Origin: Pectobacterium actinidiae
Lineage (GTDB): Bacteria; Pseudomonadota; Gammaproteobacteria; Enterobacterales; Enterobacteriaceae
NCBI RefSeq assembly: GCF_000803315.1
Contig: NZ_JRMH01000001.1
Location: 2,356,001 to 2,420,000 of the forward strand
Length of the DNA stretch: 64,000 bases
Reading direction: 5' to 3'
Part shown: in pieces, positions 8,099 to 41,416 of the stretch
Numbering within the stretch: position 1 is the first letter of the stretch
Layout: the number at the start of each line of letters is the position of its first letter
Notes under the pieces: generated by a model
What the model was told of the DNA's origin: nothing
Seen by the model: the letters and a program-made list of their open reading frames with translations, nothing else
Database searches by the model: none
Position numbers and translations under genes: made by a program

Positions 8099-9672
8099 CA
8101 GTCAATCACCCGTCCTTTGAATGCAAACAGCCCCTGTGGCCGCTTCTGAATAAACAGCACGATCAATACCAGAATGACAATCTTGCCCAGCACCGCGCCA
8201 ATCTGCGGTTCCAGCACTTTGTTGAGAATACCAAGGCTGAAGGCGGCGACCACCGTCCCTGCAAGCTGCCCGACGCCCCCCAGCACGACGACGAGGAAGG
8301 AATCGATAATGTAGCCCTGTCCCAGCTCCGGTCCGACGTTACCCAGTTGCGACAGCGCAACGCCTCCTAAGCCCGCGATGCCGGAGCCCAGCCCAAAGGC
8401 CAGCATATCAACGCGGCCGGTCGGCACGCCGCAGCAGTCCGCCATCGCCCGGTTTTGCGTCACTGCCCGCACATTCATGCCAAGGCGAGTTTTATTGAGG
8501 AGTAGCCAGGTGAGCAACAGCACGCCGAGGACGAACACAATCACCGCGATGCGGTTATACGGCAGCACCAGATTTGGCAGCAGACGCAGCCCGCCGGACA
8601 GCCATGCGGGATTGGCGACTTCCAGATTCTGCGTGCCGAACAGCATACGCACCAGTTGGATCAGCATCAGGCTGATGCCCCAAGTCGCCAGCAGCGTTTC
8701 CAGCGGTCGGCCATAAAGATGACGAATCACCGTGCGTTCCAGCACCATACCGACGCCAGCGGTAATAAAGAAGGCAACAGGCAATGCCAGCAACGGATAA
8801 TACGCCAGCCAGCTCGGCGCAAACTGCTGACACAGCGACTGCACCAGCCAGGTTGCGTATGCACCCAGCATCAACATTTCGCCGTGTGCCATGTTGATGA
8901 CGCCCAGCAGCCCGTAGGTGATCGCCAGCCCCAGCGCCGCCAGCAGCAGGATAGAACCGAGCGACAGCCCGGTAAACGCCTGTCCCAGCAGATCGCCGAC
9001 GATCAAACTTTGCTTAATCTGAGTCAGGCTCTCCTGCGCCGCCGCACGCACGCCGGTATCTGGTTCGTTCTGCGCCTGCGTTAACGGCTGTAAGCGTGCC
9101 TGCATATGCGGGTCACCGGTCTGTCCTAAGCGTTTGACCGCCTCAAGGCGCACCAGCGGATTAGGATCGCTTAATTGCCGAGTCGCAATCGCGGTATTCA
9201 GCGCATCGCGTACCTGCGCATCTTTCTCTACGCTAAGGCGCTGCACCAACAGCGGCAACTGTTCCGCACTGCTGTCGCTCTGTAGCTGCCGTACCGCATT
9301 CAGACGCGTTGCGGCGTCATTGCTGACGAGCTGATGCGCGGCCAGCGCGGTGGCAACAAGACCGCGAAGGCGGTTATTCATAAACAGTTTTTTGGTCGCA
9401 CCCACCGGTTCTGCGTTCGCGTCCAGCGGCGTTAATGTGCCCTGCACATCCCTAAACGGCTGCTGGTTCTTATCAAGCACCACCGATTCATCGCGCAGCG
9501 CCTGTAACAGCGGCAAGCGTGCGGGTTCCGGCGCTGCGGCCCATTGCTGCAACAGTTCGGCCTGCTGCGTGCGGCTGGCCGTGGCAAAATCAACCGCAGA
9601 TCCGGCCTGTGCCAGCAGCGGAAGCACCAGACACAGCGACAGCACAAACGTAGATAATCGACAACTCATCAT
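8098..9672 (-). CDS. urtB: Urea ABC transporter permease UrtB
   Basis: A 524-aa permease. Unlike LivH it carries an N-terminal periplasmic region of about 220 residues after a signal peptide (MMSCRLSTFVLSLCLVLPL), with helical repeats such as DPNPLVRLEAVKRLGQTGDPH; this extension is normal for UrtB. The C-terminal half is the LivH-like membrane domain beginning LGLAITYGLLGVINMAHGEM. ATG 9672 is preferred because it gives the signal peptide directly; in-frame ATGs at 9687 and 9717 add residues with no purpose. It is separated from urtA by about 250 bp that include a hairpin at 9831-9858, a common arrangement that lets the binding protein be made in excess. Confidence 0.92.
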   Translation of the reverse strand: MMSCRLSTFVLSLCLVLPLLAQAGSAVDFATASRTQQAELLQQWAAAPEPARLPLLQALRDESVVLDKNQQPFRDVQGTLTPLDANAEPVGATKKLFMNNRLRGLVATALAAHQLVSNDAATRLNAVRQLQSDSSAEQLPLLVQRLSVEKDAQVRDALNTAIATRQLSDPNPLVRLEAVKRLGQTGDPHMQARLQPLTQAQNEPDTGVRAAAQESLTQIKQSLIVGDLLGQAFTGLSLGSILLLAALGLAITYGLLGVINMAHGEMLMLGAYATWLVQSLCQQFAPSWLAYYPLLALPVAFFITAGVGMVLERTVIRHLYGRPLETLLATWGISLMLIQLVRMLFGTQNLEVANPAWLSGGLRLLPNLVLPYNRIAVIVFVLGVLLLTWLLLNKTRLGMNVRAVTQNRAMADCCGVPTGRVDMLAFGLGSGIAGLGGVALSQLGNVGPELGQGYIIDSFLVVVLGGVGQLAGTVVAAFSLGILNKVLEPQIGAVLGKIVILVLIVLFIQKRPQGLFAFKGRVID

Positions 9673-9830
9673 CGCAATGTCCGCCATATAAGAGAGATAA
9701 TATCTATTCGGCACCATTTATTTTGCCTTATATATCAGCAGCCTCACCGCCACACATTTATGCTGGCACAGTGAGTATTTCGTGCGCTATAACGCCGCCA
9801 TTCATATGCAATACCGTATACGCGCCCGAC

Positions 9831-9858
9831 GCAGGGCGCTCAATCGCCGCCGCCCTGC
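9831..9858 (-). terminator. Stem-loop between urtA and urtB (possible partial terminator or mRNA stabiliser)
   Basis: GCAGGGCG at 9831-9838 pairs with CGCCCTGC at 9851-9858 around a 12-base loop. It lies about 60 bp after the urtA stop on the minus strand and is not followed by a T-run, so it fits an mRNA-stabilising or leaky terminator hairpin better than a full terminator. Such elements are commonly found after periplasmic binding-protein genes, where they raise binding protein above permease levels. The rest of the urtA-urtB gap shows nothing else I can name. Confidence 0.45.
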
Positions 9859-9920
9859 GAACCCAGGCTTCCGGCTAAATTACACCGGATAACAAAACGC
9901 TTAAGACCTGAAATTCAGAT

Positions 9921-11189
9921 TTACTGCGCGGCTTTAATTGGGTGATCGGGTTTCTTATCGTTACCGGAGATGTACGGGCTCCACGGTTGCGCGCGAACCG
10001 GTTTATCCGTCTGCCAGACCACGTTGAACTGACCATTTTCCTCAATCTCACCAATCATCACCGGTTTGTGCAGGTGGTGGTTGGTGCTGTCCATCGTCAG
10101 CGTAAAGCCATCCGGTGCGGCAAAGGTTTGCCCTGCCATCGCGGCGCGCACTTTATCCACGTCTGTCGTGCCCGCTTTTTCTACCGCCTGCGCCCACATA
10201 TGAATGCCGACATAGGTCGCCTCCATCGGATCGTTAGTCACCACCGTGCCCGCATTCGGCAGATTTTTTGCTTTGGCATAGGCTTTGTAGGCTTCCACGA
10301 AGTCGGTATTGGTTGGGTTATCTACCGACTCAAAGTAGTTCCAGGCGGCTAAATGACCGACCAGCGGTTTGGTGTCGATCCCGCGCAGTTCTTCTTCGCC
10401 GACCGAGAACGCGACAACCGGCACATCGGTCGCTTTGATTCCCTGATTCGCCAGCTCTTTATAGAACGGTACGTTGGAATCGCCGTTGATGGTGGAAACC
10501 ACCGCCGTCTTGCCGCCCGTCGAGAATTTCTTGATGTTGGAAACAATGGTCTGGTAATCACTGTGGCCAAACGGCGTATAGACTTCCTCAATATCTTTGT
10601 CCTGTACGCCTTTGGAATGCAGGAACGCGCGCAGGATTTTGTTGGTGGTACGTGGATACACATAGTCCGTACCCAGCAGGAAGAAACGCTTCGCCGCCCC
10701 GCCGTCTTCACTCATTAGGTATTCCACGGCCGGGATCGCCTGCTGATTCGGTGCCGCGCCGGTGTAGAACACGTTCGGTGACATTTCTTCACCTTCATAC
10801 TGTACCGGGTAGAACAGCAGCCCGTTCAGTTCCTCAAACACGGGCAAGACCGACTTACGCGACACCGATGTCCAGCAGCCGAACACCACCGCCGCTTTAT
10901 CCTGCGTCAGCAACTGACGCGCCTTTTCGGCAAACAGCGGCCAGTTCGAAGCGGGATCGACCACCACAGGCTCCAGTTTTTTACCCAACACACCGCCTTT
11001 AGCGTTGATTTCATCAATGGTCATCAGCGCCACATCCTTCAGTGGCGTTTCCGAAATGGCCATCGTGCCGGACAGGGAATGCATAATGCCGACTTTGATG
11101 GTGTCTGCCGCCTGCACGCTCCAGGTCAACCCCATACCAACCACCGTTGCGGAAAGCGCAAAAACTTTTAGCAATGAACGTCTTTTCAT
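9921..11189 (-). CDS. urtA: Urea ABC transporter substrate-binding protein UrtA
   Basis: Periplasmic urea-binding protein of 422 aa. A signal peptide (MKRRSLLKVFALSATVVGMGL, cleavage near VQAA) precedes the family sequence IKVGIMHSLSGTMAISE, then VFGCWTSVSRKSVLPVFEELNGLLFYPVQYEG, which is diagnostic for UrtA/FmdD proteins (quoted in pieces). FmdD, which binds short-chain amides, is the main alternative; the complete urt set and the urea-degrading genes upstream make urea far more likely. ATG 11189 overlaps the stop of the upstream GntR gene as ATGA, so it is translated from the same message as the regulator. Confidence 0.93.
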   Translation of the reverse strand: MKRRSLLKVFALSATVVGMGLTWSVQAADTIKVGIMHSLSGTMAISETPLKDVALMTIDEINAKGGVLGKKLEPVVVDPASNWPLFAEKARQLLTQDKAAVVFGCWTSVSRKSVLPVFEELNGLLFYPVQYEGEEMSPNVFYTGAAPNQQAIPAVEYLMSEDGGAAKRFFLLGTDYVYPRTTNKILRAFLHSKGVQDKDIEEVYTPFGHSDYQTIVSNIKKFSTGGKTAVVSTINGDSNVPFYKELANQGIKATDVPVVAFSVGEEELRGIDTKPLVGHLAAWNYFESVDNPTNTDFVEAYKAYAKAKNLPNAGTVVTNDPMEATYVGIHMWAQAVEKAGTTDVDKVRAAMAGQTFAAPDGFTLTMDSTNHHLHKPVMIGEIEENGQFNVVWQTDKPVRAQPWSPYISGNDKKPDHPIKAAQ

Positions 11190-35801: not shown

Positions 35802-36125
35802 ATGCCAAACACGATGACCTCTCCCGCCCCGACACGCTGGGCGGATATCGCCAGACAAGGCGGATACATTACGCCGGCGCAACGTGAATCGTTCGCTCAG
35901 GCTATCCATTTAGTGAGAACACAGTTGAACACGGTGCTCAGCCAGTCAGGATCGCTGCGACGGGGTGAGTTCGAGTTCGATGCCTTTGTGGATTCACTGG
36001 AGCAGGATTTCCTGCATCAGGCCGACATCCATACGAAGAACGGGTTGCATAGCGACGTGGCACAAACCTCGTTCTGGGTCGCTCGCCTGATCGCCGATCG
36101 CTTTATTGCAGTGCGCCAAATGTAA
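35802..36125 (+). CDS. Unknown 107-aa protein in the hrpW operon
   Basis: The start codon follows the hrpW stop by one base, so the gene is translated from the same HrpL-controlled message, with AGGTGAAT at the end of hrpW as the ribosome binding site. The protein is mostly alpha-helical (WADIARQGGYITPAQRESF, then long helices with FEFDAFVDSLEQDFLHQ) and has no signal peptide or membrane span. I do not recognise the family. Position and size would suit a secretion helper for HrpW or a small secreted protein, but the helical profile is not that of a standard class I chaperone. A terminator follows. Confidence 0.7.
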   Translation: MPNTMTSPAPTRWADIARQGGYITPAQRESFAQAIHLVRTQLNTVLSQSGSLRRGEFEFDAFVDSLEQDFLHQADIHTKNGLHSDVAQTSFWVARLIADRFIAVRQM

Positions 36126-36150
36126 CACTTGCGCCATACCGCACCGGGGA

Positions 36151-36185
36151 AAAGCCAGCCAGGGCAACTTGCGCTGGCTTTTTTT
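36151..36185 (+). terminator. Intrinsic terminator after the hrpW operon
   Basis: AAAGCCAGC (36151-36159) pairs with GCTGGCTTT, loop of about 13 bases, followed by a run of seven T. It is 25 bp after the stop of the 107-aa gene and closes the transcript. Base composition changes to AT-rich right after it. Confidence 0.85.
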
Positions 36186-36472
36186 AGCTCGAGGAACCAG
36201 ACATCCGGTGTAAGTACCCCATCGTCCCTCCTGTATGTTTCTGGTAAAAATAACAGAAACACGAGTTAGGATTTCCAGAGCTAATAGATCTAAAATGTAT
36301 AAATTGGCTCAAGCATCTACCTTATAGTTCAGTCGCCCAAAAAGATTCCTTATCTTTTTTGCATTTGAAAAATAGAAAAAACCTAACCCTACGCCATGAT
36401 CGTAATAAGCCCAACAACTCATCTCTGATAGCTCTTTTTCTGCCCCCAATTATAGAGAGACATTCATCTAAT
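36186..36472. other. AT-rich junction between the hrpW operon and the peptide locus
   Basis: About 290 bp with no gene. It marks the left edge of a segment (to about 41.3 kb) whose bases and codons differ from the GC-richer hrp genes on both sides. The ABC transporter gene ends at 36473; I found no clear terminator behind it. Confidence 0.4.
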
Positions 36473-37810
36473 TCACTGTACCTTATGGCGTATTTCGATG
36501 ATTAAGTTACTTAGTGACAAAATATTGAGTCGCTCATCAATTTCGCTTGTGTTGAAAGCATCTAGATTTGCATCCCACTCATCTAAAAGGATAATACGGT
36601 TCCGTATCCCTGATAATGATTCAAGTTGATACAATTGTTTTTGTCCTGTGGAGCCAGGCACTGTGTCATCATCTATATCAATGCCAGGACCAAAAAATAA
36701 AGCATCGGAATGTTGGCTCTTCAAATATTTTATGAGCGATGATTTACCTGCGCCATTCGTCCCCATGATCAATATCCTTCCATTAGGATTACGATCAATG
36801 AAATTGTCACCTAAGATATCCTGTACGTTTATCTCATTCCCATTATAAAGATTGGTAATTGACAATTTCACAGGATCAATGTTAGCAAGATAATCATAAC
36901 CTTTGAGTGTTGTAGAAAAGGAATACAATTTTGTAACTTTTCTCTTCAACAATAAAATCTGGCTTGTACTCATACTTGCAGCATGAATGTTCTGGAACAA
37001 CTGTAAACTTCTTGGCAGTACAGCAACCAGCGCACCGATAGCGACTTCATTCACTGAAACCTGATAATATGAAAACCCTACCAATAATGGAATAGAAATA
37101 AGAATAGGCGTACAGGAAATTATCTGCTCCAATAATTTGTACGACTCTTTTCGCTTGAAATAAATAGACGCTTTCTCTCGGGTTAATGACTGTGCAGAAG
37201 CCAAACGCTCTCGATCACCATAGAACATGCTATCCCATATTTTACTCAAAAAATGCAATGTCGTGATTTTATCATTTTGCATATTTCCAGCCAATCCCCC
37301 TATCTTTCCTTTTGCCAGAAATAAGAGCATGACTGAAAATAACATGCAGAATACAATAACCCCAGCCAACTCCACGCCCAAAATGACAAATAGTGCGATA
37401 GTAGTGAAAATGACGTTAAAATATATGGCGAGAATCTCAACAAACTCAAAGCCAACCTCATCAAAAGTGCTAAGCGCTTCACCACTGAGCCATAGTTGAG
37501 TTAATTTTTTATTCTCATCCGTCGAAAGTGAATGATTACGAGAAACACTTTCCAAAGTTGATAGATAATATTTTTGCCACAGCGAATTCGATAATTTAAC
37601 ACGATAAAATAAAGACACCGAACCCAAAAAATAAGCAATAAAAATAGAAAAAAAGAACAACCCAGTATAAAAAAAAGCCCCAAAGGAGCTTAAATTAATA
37701 TTTTCTCCAGCTCGACCAATAAAATAGGTCGATAATCCAACAAGTATTTGCTGAAGGCAGACAAAGCCAACGCTGATTATAAAAAACTTGTTAAAGAAAA
37801 CGTTATTCAT
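36473..37810 (-). CDS. ABC exporter with reduced nucleotide-binding domain (peptide locus)
   Basis: A 445-aa transmembrane-ATPase fusion. Residues 1-300 form a membrane domain with about six spans. The ATPase part is very short: Walker A GTNGAGKSS at 350-358, a degenerate signature GSTGQKQ at 386-392, Walker B IILLDEW at 406-412 followed by DANLD, and the switch histidine at 442. Only about 35 residues separate Walker A from the signature, against roughly 90-100 in ordinary ABC proteins, so the helical subdomain with the Q-loop is largely missing. The LLDEW Walker B recalls exporters of the YojI/SyrD group for small peptides. Last gene of the minus-strand peptide locus, overlapping the preceding gene by 8 bp. 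Probable role: export of the modified peptide, or immunity. Confidence 0.75.
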   Translation of the reverse strand: MNNVFFNKFFIISVGFVCLQQILVGLSTYFIGRAGENINLSSFGAFFYTGLFFFSIFIAYFLGSVSLFYRVKLSNSLWQKYYLSTLESVSRNHSLSTDENKKLTQLWLSGEALSTFDEVGFEFVEILAIYFNVIFTTIALFVILGVELAGVIVFCMLFSVMLLFLAKGKIGGLAGNMQNDKITTLHFLSKIWDSMFYGDRERLASAQSLTREKASIYFKRKESYKLLEQIISCTPILISIPLLVGFSYYQVSVNEVAIGALVAVLPRSLQLFQNIHAASMSTSQILLLKRKVTKLYSFSTTLKGYDYLANIDPVKLSITNLYNGNEINVQDILGDNFIDRNPNGRILIMGTNGAGKSSLIKYLKSQHSDALFFGPGIDIDDDTVPGSTGQKQLYQLESLSGIRNRIILLDEWDANLDAFNTSEIDERLNILSLSNLIIEIRHKVQ

Positions 37811-38159
37811 ATTTTTTAATGATTGTCCCTGTTAGCTTCAGAGCATGTAACATACGGGGTTTGAGATGCGATGGCAAATTATCTACTATACTATAAATTA
37901 CGTCATCTGAGTTTTCAACACCCAATTGATGAAAAATTTTAACTCTATCTTCTTGATTGTAAGAAGCAGCAAGGCAGGACAATATAAGTCTTTGCTCATT
38001 GTTATCAAATAGAGGTTTTACTTCATCAATAAAAAACTGAGATGTTTTACGCAATGTTACTGCGGAGACTACTTTTACTTTTCGTTTCTTTTCATCTTCC
38101 GTAGTTGCCAAGTTAACATATTCATTGAGTAATTCTATATTTTCCGAATGATAAATCAT
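37803..38159 (-). CDS. Unknown 118-aa helical protein of the peptide locus
   Basis: I do not recognise this protein. It starts at ATG 38159; a TTG at 38168, two bases after the previous stop, would give 121 aa and may be used by coupled translation. The sequence is all-helical in appearance, charged, with a Leu-rich middle (NEQRLILSCLAASYNQ) and ending KPRMLHALKLTGTIIKKYE. No cysteine pair or catalytic motif is seen. It lies between the cupin gene and the exporter, with an 8-bp overlap to the latter. In a modified-peptide locus a small helical protein could carry the precursor, act as adaptor or give immunity; this is inference. Confidence 0.6.
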   Translation of the reverse strand: MIYHSENIELLNEYVNLATTEDEKKRKVKVVSAVTLRKTSQFFIDEVKPLFDNNEQRLILSCLAASYNQEDRVKIFHQLGVENSDDVIYSIVDNLPSHLKPRMLHALKLTGTIIKKYE

Positions 38160-38170
38160 CTTTGACAATT

Positions 38171-38884
38171 TTAGAATGAACCAAATTGTTCAGTTAATGA
38201 AAGCTGTTTTAATTCATGCAACATTTGCTTTCTACACTGAACAGAATCGATCATATTTAAAAGTCTAAAATATTTTATTTTCTTATTAAACATAATATCA
38301 GTCGCAGAGTGATTAACTCTCAACCCAGGAGGAAAGTAGTTAAGCTGCGGAGACAATTCCATGACTGGATGAGTCCTTACTATCAAGCTGACTGTCGGTT
38401 TTTCTAAGTGAAGAACAGCATGTTTTTCCTTTCTGCCATAGGGGATGACCCGGCAGTCTCCTTTTTTACTGATATAGGCCTCAGTGAGTTTGATGTCACC
38501 TAAACTAAGGTTATGGCTAACTTCGTCGGTTTCATCAAATGAATATATCGCATTCAAAGAACTTCCTTCAAGCTGTAGCAGAACCCCAGAAAATCCATGA
38601 TCATGAATTGAGGTATCATTATCCCACCAATTAAGTACCTCAATGTAAAAACGAGAATTGTCGAAAAGTTTCAGGTGTAACTCAGAGAATTCAGAGACTA
38701 TTTGGATTTTAGACATTTCACTATTGTCTAAAACGTCGATTAGTCTAGTAAAAGAAAAGAGAGAGGTTAAATCAATCTTATCTAACTCTGATTTTGCGAT
38801 ATCGGCGAAAGTGTAACAACTATAGTCATCCTCACGCCACCTAGCATCAATATTTCCTGCCAAAGACTTAATTAAATTTAACAT
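38171..38884 (-). CDS. Cysteine dioxygenase-like cupin protein of the peptide locus
   Basis: A 237-aa protein. ATG 38884 has GAGGTG six bases upstream; an ATG at 38896 contains that SD and is rejected. The cupin core shows TSIHDHGFSGVLLQLEGSS (His94 and His96), then IPYGRKEKHAVLHLEKPTVSLI with His155, which together match the 3-His iron site of thiol dioxygenases in order and spacing. The region VRTHPV closes the barrel. The N-terminal 80 and C-terminal 60 residues are helical. It starts 4 bp inside the upstream gene's end. A mononuclear non-haem iron oxygenase acting on the peptide is the natural reading; cysteine dioxygenation is unlikely here because the putative precursor has no cysteine. 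Confidence 0.68.
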   Translation of the reverse strand: MLNLIKSLAGNIDARWREDDYSCYTFADIAKSELDKIDLTSLFSFTRLIDVLDNSEMSKIQIVSEFSELHLKLFDNSRFYIEVLNWWDNDTSIHDHGFSGVLLQLEGSSLNAIYSFDETDEVSHNLSLGDIKLTEAYISKKGDCRVIPYGRKEKHAVLHLEKPTVSLIVRTHPVMELSPQLNYFPPGLRVNHSATDIMFNKKIKYFRLLNMIDSVQCRKQMLHELKQLSLTEQFGSF

Positions 38885-38885
38885 A

Positions 38886-39743
38886 TCACACCTCATGGCT
38901 AAGATTGTTCTGAGCTTTTAATAAAAAATCTCTGGTTCTTTGGGTTATTAAATCATTCAAATTTTTCATTGCTAGTGTTTCTGCAATAGAGTTCATTGTA
39001 TTATTCTTTAATATATCAGTAGCAGGATGAATTGTAACCATATCTGATTCAAGATAATTTCTGCGCGCATTGAGAATTTCATGAGAGACAAGAATGCTAT
39101 GCACAACTTTATCCAATGGCCTTCTTTTCCCAAGTAGAGCAGACATTGAATAATTTTCAGGCTTAACGATTTCCTGATAGTTAAATTGCTCGTGGCACCG
39201 CTCATCAATAAATAACAAATGGTGCGTCAATTCATGCAACAAAAATTCTGCGACATCATGAGATGTCAAGTCGCCATGACCACTAATCCAGATACTGCCT
39301 ATTGCAGTTGAAGAAGAACCACCAAATGATGCAGTATTAAATTCATTAGTAGATTTCCTGAAAAAAATTGTGTGGATAACCAGAGCAAAGATTAACTTAA
39401 TATCAGCATTGCTACTGGATAGTTGATTGTACCCTTTTATAATGAGTTCAGAAAGTTCTCTGTATCTCTCAACACTATGCTTATCGCCTATCATTTTTAA
39501 TTGATTTAGATCATCAAGCTTGCTTGGTTGATAGGCATTTTTTAGCGCATTTATTTTTTCATCATCGACAACAATGATGTTCTCGCTCACGTTAACAGGT
39601 TGATAAGGCTGGTGCTTCTGAATAAATTTCAAATAGAATGGTTTAAGCTCATGAGTATTTTTAACTGATTTATCCCCGAGGAATGGCTGGGATAAAAGAT
39701 AGACATTTTTAACTAACTCTTGCTTACCAAGGATACTTAACAT
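38886..39743 (-). CDS. HExxH-motif protein, putative peptide-modifying (beta-hydroxylase-like) enzyme
   Basis: A 285-aa protein with GGAG five bases before ATG 39743. The metal motif HELTH is at residues 170-174 (FLLHELTHHLLF), and a third candidate ligand, His221, is in HSILVSHEILNARRNYL. This HExxH...H layout, in a protein with a helical C-terminus and no signal peptide, is seen in the HExxH-motif peptide-modification family whose characterised members are, as I recall, 2-oxoglutarate-dependent peptide beta-hydroxylases rather than proteases. A metalloprotease that removes the leader is the main alternative. It is the first gene of the four-gene block and lies just downstream of an IS200-type element that separates it from the putative precursor gene. 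Confidence 0.7.
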   Translation of the reverse strand: MLSILGKQELVKNVYLLSQPFLGDKSVKNTHELKPFYLKFIQKHQPYQPVNVSENIIVVDDEKINALKNAYQPSKLDDLNQLKMIGDKHSVERYRELSELIIKGYNQLSSSNADIKLIFALVIHTIFFRKSTNEFNTASFGGSSSTAIGSIWISGHGDLTSHDVAEFLLHELTHHLLFIDERCHEQFNYQEIVKPENYSMSALLGKRRPLDKVVHSILVSHEILNARRNYLESDMVTIHPATDILKNNTMNSIAETLAMKNLNDLITQRTRDFLLKAQNNLSHEV

Positions 39744-39757
39744 ATAGGCTCCAATAA

Positions 39758-40372
39758 GTAAAAATCCACCTCTTGAAGAGGTGGCTTTAAGTGGGGCCCC
39801 TAGAAGGGGGCCTTGTCCGTTTTAATCCTGCAATAACTCCATTTGCTGTTCGTATTCTTGGTCTTTCTTATCCTGATGCCTCACGTAACGTCTGATAATT
39901 TCTTCGTTCACTCCCACCGTGTCCGCAAAGTATCCTCTAGCCCAAAAGTGATTGCCCCACAGTTTCTTTCTTATATGCGGGAATTTATTGTAGAGACGAA
40001 TTGCCGTGCGCCCTTTCAGGACGCCCATTAGCGTTGAAATTGAGAGTTTCGGTGGAACCATCACGACAAGATGAACATGGTCTGGTTGAACATTTAGTTC
40101 CAATATCTCGCAATCTTTCATATTGCAAAGTATGTAAATCGAACGGTAAAGCTCTTTCCCTACTGTGCCCGTTAAAATCTTGTAGCGATATTTTGGGGTC
40201 CAAACCAAGTGGTATTTGCAACGCCAAAACACATGTGCTGAACTTCTATAACTGCTCATGTCAGTGATTTCCTTCTTACTTGTGGTGAGTAAGCTGGAAT
40301 TTTCTGGCATGGGCTTCCTTCAGGCTATAGCCTCACAGGGACAATCACCACCTCCCGAGGAGGTGGTTTAAG
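39758..40372 (-). mobile_element. IS200/IS605-family insertion sequence (IS200 group)
   Basis: A single-gene element with a Y1 transposase and no terminal inverted repeats, but with subterminal hairpins, as expected for IS200. At the left the palindrome CCACCTCTTGAAGAGGTGG is at 39766-39784; at the right CCACCTCCCGAGGAGGTGG is at 40348-40366. A second stem, GGCCCC...GGGGCC, lies at about 39795-39812 between the left end and the gene. Exact ends are uncertain by a few bases. It has inserted between the precursor gene with its terminator and the modification genes. Confidence 0.85.
39822..40259 (-). CDS. tnpA: IS200-type Y1 (HUH) transposase TnpA
   Basis: A 145-aa transposase that cuts and joins single-stranded DNA. 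The start at MSSYRSSAHVFWRCKYHLVW (40259) is the usual one for IS200; the frame is open to 40310. The HUH motif is His61-Val-His63 in QPDHVHLVV, and the catalytic tyrosine is Tyr125 in EEIIRRYVRHQ. All active-site residues are in place and the length is normal, so the element may still move. It reads in the same direction as the peptide locus. Confidence 0.93.
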   Translation of the reverse strand: MSSYRSSAHVFWRCKYHLVWTPKYRYKILTGTVGKELYRSIYILCNMKDCEILELNVQPDHVHLVVMVPPKLSISTLMGVLKGRTAIRLYNKFPHIRKKLWGNHFWARGYFADTVGVNEEIIRRYVRHQDKKDQEYEQQMELLQD

Positions 40373-40377
40373 GCTGA

Positions 40378-40410
40378 CAATAAAAGCACCCAAACATCGG
40401 GTGCTTATTG
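40378..40410 (-). terminator. Hairpin terminator/attenuator directly after the putative precursor gene
   Basis: On the minus strand CAATAAGCACCC (complement of 40399-40410) pairs with GGGTGCTTTTATTG (complement of 40378-40391), loop of seven bases and a two-T bulge. It begins one base after the precursor stop. Partial read-through at such a hairpin gives more precursor than enzyme message, an arrangement common in peptide loci. Confidence 0.75.
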
Positions 40411-40411
40411 T

Positions 40412-40543
40412 CTACGCATCAAAAGCAAGCATGTTCATTGGCCCAAGAATGGATACTTCTTCACTTTCCATCTTGTTAACTTGATTTTCCGTTGCTTCAA
40501 TTTCCATTTCCTTCACTGAATTAATCAGATCTTGAATATCCAT
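40412..40543 (-). CDS. Putative RiPP precursor peptide, 43 aa
   Basis: A short gene with a strong ribosome binding site (GAGGTAA eight bases before ATG 40543). The peptide begins MDIQDLINSVKEMEIEATE, an acidic, amphipathic helical segment like many RiPP leaders, continues through QVNKMESEEV, and ends with a different, hydrophobic stretch SILGPMNMLAFDA. It has no Cys, Trp, Thr-rich or Gly-rich core, so lanthipeptide, thiazole and sactipeptide types are unlikely; Asn, Asp, Pro, Met or Phe could be targets of oxidation. A terminator follows immediately, then the IS200 element and the HExxH, cupin, unknown and ABC genes on the same strand. The leader/core boundary is not visible. Confidence 0.66.
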   Translation of the reverse strand: MDIQDLINSVKEMEIEATENQVNKMESEEVSILGPMNMLAFDA

Positions 40544-40639
40544 AGTGTATTACCTCATATATGAAATTTAATACCCATGCAAAATCACCGGGCATTTCGA
40601 CACTACAAAAACAGACCACAAAAGTAAACAAAAAAAATA

Positions 40640-41118
40640 CAATTAATGTCAAATTAAATAACAAATAAATATAATAATTATGACCAAAAAAATATCATCA
40701 AAGTAATATCAACTGATATTATTTTGATGATTAACTGTGGGGGTGAGTTAATTCCTTCCGTTATCCCAACGCTGTATTCATTGAAAAACTTAGAGCAGAA
40801 TGGAGTACTGAAGATACTTCTTAAAAGCACCAGTAACGATCGAAAGCACAATACCCAACAACACAGCTGCGGGTAAGAGCGACAGATTCGACCACACAGC
40901 AGTTGGTCAGGACAAATACAACATACAGGGGACATACATAGCAGGCTTCACAAACCGCTTAGCATGATAATGGATAAAACAGGATTCGTAGCCAGCGCCG
41001 TAGAGCCGTAAATCCCCATGAACCAGACCATCAGCGCCCTCTGTCACTCCAACCATGATAAAAGGCGGTACAGATAGCACCAGAATGCCAACCTGTATAG
41101 CAAAAATGATCGTTGAAG
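40640..41118 (-). pseudogene. Decayed membrane-protein gene (permease-like remnant)
   Basis: On the minus strand two neighbouring frames give hydrophobic fragments, first TIIFAIQVGILVLSVPP near 41100, later LSLLPAAVLLGIVLSIV near 40870, interrupted by stops and frameshifts. They look like spans of a transporter, but the family cannot be named. The remnant ends where the IS3-type remnant begins at 41119. The remaining part toward 40544 is AT-rich and probably holds the promoter of the precursor gene. Confidence 0.4.
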
Positions 41119-41330
41119 TGACACAGTAAATTTGGCCACCTGAATTGGGGGGATATTCTTACCTCAACACAAAACAGGTGACTTCATGAATAAGAAAATA
41201 AAGCGTACCTTTTTCCCCCTAGTTCAGACTAGAAGGTGATCTACTTATTACTGATAAGGGGTATTCATGTCGCGTAAAGGATAGCAAGCGAAGTGAAAAC
41301 GCAATAATGCGGAGAAATAACTGAAATCAG
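41119..41330 (+). pseudogene. Remnant of an IS3-family element (left end and orfA start)
   Basis: Starts TGACACAGTAAATTTGGCC like an IS left end, then ATG 41186 opens MNKKIKRTFFPLVQTRR and stops; a second frame continues LLITDKGYSCR, which corresponds to the usual orfA sequence after MNKK.KRTF.P (QLIVDKGYSYR-like). So this is orfA broken by a frameshift, with the rest lost. It forms the right edge of the AT-rich insert next to hrpN. Confidence 0.6.
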
Positions 41331-41373
41331 GGCAACCAATTAATTAATAATTAATTTAATTATGATTAATAAC

Positions 41374-41403
41374 CAGGGAGCAGCGCTTCCGCCCTGCTCC
41401 CTG
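41374..41403 (-). terminator. Terminator-like hairpin after hrpN
   Basis: CAGGGAGCAG (41374-41383) and CTGCTCCCTG (41394-41403) form a perfect 10-bp stem, 13 bp after the hrpN stop. On the minus strand it is followed by GTTATTAATC, a modest T-tract. Confidence 0.7.
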
Positions 41404-41416
41404 TAGTTTCTTCGCT

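What the first reader, a model, noticed from the sequence alone, without database searches (positions are those of the whole stretch)
36473..40543. Undescribed modified-peptide (RiPP-like) locus inside the hrp cluster
Seen: on one strand, a 43-codon gene with a strong SD, a hairpin terminator, then an HExxH protein, a 3-His cupin, a 118-aa unknown and an ABC exporter, packed with 4-8 bp overlaps. Established: RiPP loci combine a short precursor with leader-like acidic N-terminus, modifying enzymes and an exporter, and HExxH-motif proteins occur as peptide-modifying enzymes. Inference: these genes make and export an oxidised peptide. The absence of radical SAM, lanthionine, YcaO or ATP-grasp genes means it would belong to no classical RiPP class. 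The location between hrpW and hrpN in a plant pathogen suggests a role at the plant interface or in competition.
Basis: partly seen in the sequence, partly recalled or inferred. Interest (0 to 1): 0.95.

Follow-up and report, generated by a model that had tools for sequence, protein, structure and literature searches.

The report
Mobile oxidised-peptide cassette, broken here
A gene cassette found at different chromosomal sites in soft-rot and insect-associated bacteria pairs a 43-residue peptide that has a conserved tail with enzymes predicted to oxidise it and a predicted exporter; in this genome an insertion element separates the peptide gene from the enzyme genes and one enzyme gene is split.

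The parts
40412..40543 (-). 43-aa predicted precursor peptide; acidic N-terminal part, C-terminal GPMNMLAFDA with motif M-x-A-[F/Y]-[D/E]
   Evidence: (identical codons in L018 and L019; 7 aa differences from Xenorhabdus)
40553..40556 (-). Shine-Dalgarno GAGG of the precursor gene
   Evidence: read from the sequence
40384..40406 (-). terminator-like hairpin after the precursor gene; GCACCC...GGGTGC stem kept in Xenorhabdus
39755..40385 (-). IS200/IS605-family element inserted between the precursor gene (with its hairpin) and the HExxH gene; ends approximate
   Evidence: absent at this place in L019 and L013-L015
39822..40310 (-). tnpA, IS200-like Y1 transposase, 162 aa
   Evidence: PF01797, NF033573
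38886..39743 (-). aKG-HExxH-type peptide hydroxylase, 285 aa
38171..38884 (-). N-terminal piece of the thiol-dioxygenase-fold cupin gene (ORF ends early in this genome)
   Evidence: fold
37803..38159 (-). C-terminal helical piece of the same gene, in another frame here
36473..37810 (-). half-ABC transporter with a very short nucleotide-binding domain (Walker A G350 to signature S387: 37 residues), predicted exporter

Best explanation
This is a modified-peptide (RiPP-like) cassette in which a 43-aa precursor with the C-terminal motif M-x-A-[F/Y]-[D/E] would be hydroxylated within that motif by an aKG-HExxH oxygenase, further oxidised by a thiol-dioxygenase-fold cupin, and likely exported by a small half-ABC transporter. 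Shown here: conservation of the peptide beside the HExxH gene in five lineages; family and predicted fold of both oxygenases; the transporter motifs; exchange of the second enzyme between lineages (cupin in Pectobacterium and Xenorhabdus, a methyltransferase-like protein in a Photorhabdus locus, none in Acerihabitans and Acinetobacter); an IS200 element and a split cupin gene in the window's copy. Inferred: that the HExxH enzyme acts on the motif common to all precursors, because it is the only modifying enzyme common to all these loci; that the cupin acts on the GPMN stretch that only the cupin-bearing loci have; that the N-terminal part is a leader removed by a protease encoded elsewhere; that a terminator-like hairpin makes more precursor than enzyme; that the product acts between bacteria. 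In this genome the IS and the split gene probably stop production.
Against: No modified peptide has been seen; no protease gene or peptidase domain was found in the cassette; no double-glycine site is visible. The cupin fold is that of thiol dioxygenases but these precursors have no Cys. Two HExxH relatives (L045, L022) lie in other contexts without such a peptide; the L022 protein does not match TIGR04267. The first profile (A1) did not find 8s5f by sequence; a wider one (A5) did, at E 0.00083. The cassette is rare: 3 of 25 genomes of the genus, 4 of 295 and 4 of 392 of the family in overlapping draws, only the own genome of 369 in the class draw.
Confidence: 0.6

Rival explanations
1. The HExxH enzyme does not stop at hydroxylation but cuts the backbone oxidatively at the invariant Ala of the motif, leaving a C-terminal amide on a shortened peptide, as PflC and PosC do at ARMD.
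For: Ala is invariant in the motif of the four precursors aligned and is present in all eight database precursors. In PosC/PflC the first residue of ARMD, an Ala, is the critical determinant, extension beyond the tetrapeptide is tolerated and the AlphaFold3 model puts the iron next to this Ala (PMC12636437, abstract, Discussion and passages). The tail AFDA is, like ARMD, four residues long and starts with Ala.
Against: The motif is not ARMD; the pfl/pos loci have other partner genes (MNIO-nitroreductase, GNAT) and a long nitrile-hydratase-type leader; most characterised family members only hydroxylate.
Confidence: 0.2
2. The HExxH protein is a metalloprotease that removes the leader, and the cupin is the only modifying enzyme.
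For: HExxH is the classical zincin motif; PflC hydrolyses leaderless substrate (PMC12636437, passages); no other protease gene was found in the cassette.
Confidence: 0.07
3. The small ORF is not a precursor but a regulatory or structural partner peptide of the enzymes, which act on another substrate.
For: Two HExxH relatives in the Photorhabdus-type genus (L045, L022) sit among other biosynthetic-looking genes without a motif peptide.
Against: Peptide and enzyme occur together in five lineages, conservation is concentrated in the C-terminal motif, and an ABC transporter is always adjacent in those loci.
Confidence: 0.08
4. In this genome the locus is only debris of a mobile element and has no function.
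For: IS200 between precursor and enzymes, split cupin gene; the G314 copy (L018) is also interrupted, by transposase genes before the HExxH gene and inside the ABC gene.
Against: Low omega for every gene piece and a precursor identical in its 43 codons to the two other copies suggest that decay is recent; a sequencing error at the split cannot be excluded. This concerns the copy, not the family: L019 and the Xenorhabdus copies are uninterrupted.
Confidence: 0.65

Closest known systems
pfl and pos RiPP clusters of Pseudomonas (HEXXH enzymes PflC, PosC; PMC12636437)
   Same: aKG-HExxH enzyme family next to a short precursor, action at the C-terminal end of the precursor, no protease gene in the cluster, an invariant Ala in the C-terminal motif.
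   Different: No MNIO-nitroreductase or GNAT; 43-48 aa precursors (71 aa in Acinetobacter) without ARMD or Gln run; a thiol-dioxygenase-fold cupin or a methyltransferase-like protein as second enzyme.
Nitrilobacillin pes cluster (PesO; PMC13060819) and biphenomycin bpm/bip clusters (BpmH/BipH; PMC12257519, PMC12707348)
   Same: aKG-HExxH hydroxylase as tailoring enzyme of a RiPP; the pbs relative of biphenomycin also has a cupin-like hydroxylase.
   Different: Those clusters have MNIO, B12-radical SAM, arginase, AS-like or peptidase genes, none seen here; their cupin is described as related to a JmjC-domain protein, not as of thiol-dioxygenase fold.
ChlB HExxH domain (8s5f)
   Different: [quoted passage not shown] here it stands alone.
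Cysteine/thiol dioxygenases (4qm9, 3eqe, 8vni, 4tlf)
   Different: About 11-21% identity, no Pfam match, an extra helical C-terminal part of about 120 residues, and no Cys in the cognate precursor.

Membership tests
aKG-HExxH peptide beta-hydroxylase (TIGR04267) | NCBIfam model above its curated cut-off | tested here: met
   46.4 bits against 40; relatives 47.1 (L013), 59.1 (L043), 55.0 (L035)
aKG-HExxH peptide beta-hydroxylase (TIGR04267) | HExxH plus further metal-site His conserved | tested here: met
   H170, E171, H174 and H215 invariant in 37 sequences; H215 aligns with a His of 8s5f. That H215 is a ligand is inferred
aKG-HExxH peptide beta-hydroxylase (TIGR04267) | fold of the ChlB HExxH domain | tested here: met
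   [not shown]
aKG-HExxH peptide beta-hydroxylase (TIGR04267) | Fe(II)/aKG-dependent oxidation of a peptide | not testable with these tools
   needs enzyme assay
RiPP biosynthetic cluster | short precursor gene conserved next to modifying enzyme | tested here: met
   10 of 12 stretches; shared motif at 21-24% identity
RiPP biosynthetic cluster | post-translational modification of the precursor and leader removal | not testable with these tools
   needs mass spectrometry; no protease gene found in the cassette
pfl/pos-type HEXXH RiPP | MNIO-nitroreductase and GNAT partners, C-terminal ARMD | tested here: not met
   gene content; precursors
Thiol dioxygenase (CDO/PCO families) | Pfam membership | tested here: not met
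   0 of 29 members of alignment A2 match any Pfam family at E 0.01; best PDB profile hit is a CDO at E 0.26
Thiol dioxygenase (CDO/PCO families) | cupin fold with 3-His site | tested here: met
   [not shown]
Thiol dioxygenase (CDO/PCO families) | thiol substrate | tested here: inconclusive
   no Cys in the cupin-type precursors; another thiol substrate is not excluded
Peptidase-containing RiPP exporter (PCAT type) | N-terminal C39 peptidase domain and double-glycine leader | tested here: not met
   no peptidase domain in Pfam or NCBIfam scans of the 445-aa protein; no GG in the precursor

The most novel reading that the evidence does not exclude
A new RiPP family defined by the M-x-A-[F/Y]-[D/E] tail, in which the HExxH enzyme cuts the backbone oxidatively at the invariant Ala to leave a C-terminal amide, a thiol-dioxygenase-fold enzyme oxidises a non-thiol residue of the same Cys-free peptide, and the exporter runs on a dwarf ATPase domain; the second enzyme is a swappable module.
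Probability: 0.2. Interest if true: 0.82.

Novelty: new variant of a known kind. Interest (0 to 1): 0.6.

Why it matters
It would add a peptide family with a simple recognition tail to the young aKG-HExxH field, where the reaction cannot yet be predicted from sequence, and offers natural variants (cupin, methyltransferase-like, none) on one core that separate what each enzyme does. If the cupin acts on a Cys-free peptide, it would be a thiol-dioxygenase-fold enzyme doing other chemistry. The genome comparison also shows the hrpW-hrpN interval of Pectobacterium as a site of variable cargo, a warning against reading function from position inside hrp.

Tried and rejected
Separate 118-aa gene: rejected. 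Metalloprotease reading: outranked. Anti-phage defence: PADLOC gave no match for the HExxH protein, the cupin piece or the peptide; the ABC protein has six weak matches in its ATPase part, the best mad3 at 25.6 bits, taken as generic ATPase similarity. A thioviridamide-precursor match of the 43-aa peptide (NF033415, 14.4 bits against cut-off 40) was dismissed. Fetching more loci: viral contigs gave no relative, plasmids only two Acinetobacter records for HExxH and none for the cupin, E. coli none, the class draw none beyond the own genome. (DNA between precursor and hrpN) matched 22 of 25 genomes, mostly at scattered short repeats, and was not used to place the site. L044 (broken HExxH copy of G693) was fetched but not analysed. 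The nomenclature hrpW/hrpN is taken from the finding and from recall; I did not test it with a family search, and the ORF 35802-36125 has no Pfam match. Literature: the searches listed no paper that describes this cassette; many papers are not held. That ordinary ABC domains have about 100 residues between Walker A and signature is recalled.
Full report
What is in the window. On the minus strand, 40543 to 36473, there is a 43-codon gene, a terminator-like hairpin, an HExxH protein gene, two ORFs that together make a cupin gene, and a 445-aa ABC protein gene.

The split gene. The "3-His cupin" and the "118-aa unknown" are one gene elsewhere. In L018, L019, L013, L014 and L015 both parts are read in one frame, and each of the 33 database relatives of the cupin piece is 310-383 aa long. 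In the window the reading frame changes near 38171. Intact copies exist. Whether the change is real or an assembly error cannot be told here. Both pieces still show low omega against L019 (0.09 and 0.17), so decay, if real, is recent.

The genus. One search names the closest HExxH relative Pectobacterium polaris (93% identity); the contig of the 97-98% cupin relative "Pectobacterium sp. A5351" has the length of the G314 contig that holds L018, and G314 is in the window's genus. So the window is from Pectobacterium.

Is the peptide real? Its 43 codons are identical in three Pectobacterium copies, and against Xenorhabdus L013 it has 27 base but only 7 residue differences (dN 0.097, dS 2.19). A profile search with four precursors found eight 43-48 aa proteins, among them Rouxiella, Photorhabdus, Xenorhabdus bovienii and Acerihabitans. 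Two types appear...GPMNMLAFD[A/V], and, in the loci read here without the cupin...VRMIAYDDL[A/V]. They are 21-24% identical but share Glu12, Val22, Met25, Glu28, Glu29, Met38, Ala40 and Asp42. A 71-aa Acinetobacter plasmid ORF next to an HExxH gene has RMIAYED. As a control, of 1518 ORFs of 30-90 aa in 12 stretches, 9 carry M[LIV]A[FY][DE] within their last 18 residues, and all 9 are the HExxH neighbour. L014 is a tenth. L045 and L022, two distant HExxH relatives from the genus of G233, have none. The stretches fall into about five lineages, so this is fewer than ten independent cases.

The second enzyme is exchanged. In the Photorhabdus-type locus L043 a 292-aa methyltransferase-like protein lies between HExxH and ABC (Methyltransf_25 22.7 and PRMT_C 17.4 bits, both below cut-off). 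L021 has a 0.9-kb gap there that I did not annotate. L010/L020 (Acerihabitans, by identity of its peptide and contig length with P0154) and the Acinetobacter plasmid have no such gene. The HExxH enzyme, the ABC protein and the motif peptide are the common core; from this I infer that the HExxH enzyme acts on the common motif.

The transporter. Six ABC proteins of the family share Walker A, STGQ, LDEWDANLD and a final RH, with 37 residues between Walker A and STGQ in the window protein. About 100 would be usual (recalled). No peptidase domain was found.

Position and mobility. Among 25 genomes of the genus, 3 have the HExxH gene. In G305 the cassette lies between two IS4/5-family transposase ORFs in the same orientation, in G314 beside a TraD/TraG-type gene and a DUF4400 gene, in neither case at hrp. 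The hrpW-side ORF and hrpN are on one contig in 18 of 25 genomes (one more has them on two contigs, six have neither): the gap is below 1.1 kb in 7, about 2.2 kb in 2 and 5.3-8.9 kb in 9, the window included. In the other eight long gaps, six hold ORFs with one VgrG-like N-terminus (Pfam-tested only in L059, with DUF4123, Tle1-like and DUF2931 genes), one (G305) a chaperone-usher operon and one (G303) a 1437-aa ORF without Pfam match. The site takes up varying cargo, so the cassette's place says little about its role.

How it would work. Precursor made in excess of enzymes, because a hairpin follows its gene (kept in Xenorhabdus; inferred). The HExxH oxygenase binds the acidic N-terminal part and oxidises the C-terminal motif (inferred; relatives hydroxylate His, Asp, Phe, Gln and Pro). 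The cupin works on GPMN (inferred). The ABC protein exports (inferred from its type and constant presence). An alternative is cleavage at the invariant Ala as in PflC/PosC, where the Ala of ARMD is the critical residue. No target or activity of the product is known; competition between bacteria is my guess, given the T6SS cargo at the same site and the insect-associated relatives, and is not evidence.

Literature seen: PMC12636437 (outline, abstract, first part, Discussion, passages), PMC13060819 (outline, abstract, passages), PMC12257519 and PMC12707348 (passages). No paper on this cassette was listed.

Noticed in passing
hrpW-hrpN interval, window 36126-41416; L054-L061: This interval is a variable-cargo site in Pectobacterium: 0.7 to 8.9 kb in 18 genomes, with VgrG-like genes (Tle1-like effector set tested in L059), a chaperone-usher operon, or a 1437-aa ORF without Pfam match.
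   Followed up: partly
L061:110-4423: 1437-aa protein without Pfam or PADLOC match at the same hrp site in G303.
   Followed up: no
36473-37810 and relatives: ABC protein family with a dwarf nucleotide-binding domain: only 37 residues from Walker A to the signature in the window protein, conserved LDEWDANLD.
   Followed up: partly
L045:5475-6314 and L022:6009-6821: HExxH relatives in a Photorhabdus-type genus among other enzyme genes (E1-like, JmjC-like, aminotransferase-like and dioxygenase-like by my reading), without a motif peptide.
   Followed up: no
L018:5208-6650 and 8752-10052: The G314 copy is interrupted twice by transposase genes, one of them, as in the window, between precursor and HExxH gene, so that gap has been hit twice independently.
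   Followed up: partly
36473-37810 against L019: The ABC gene is three times more diverged at silent sites (dS 0.35) than the HExxH and cupin genes (0.11) between window and L019, which suggests recombination.
   Followed up: no
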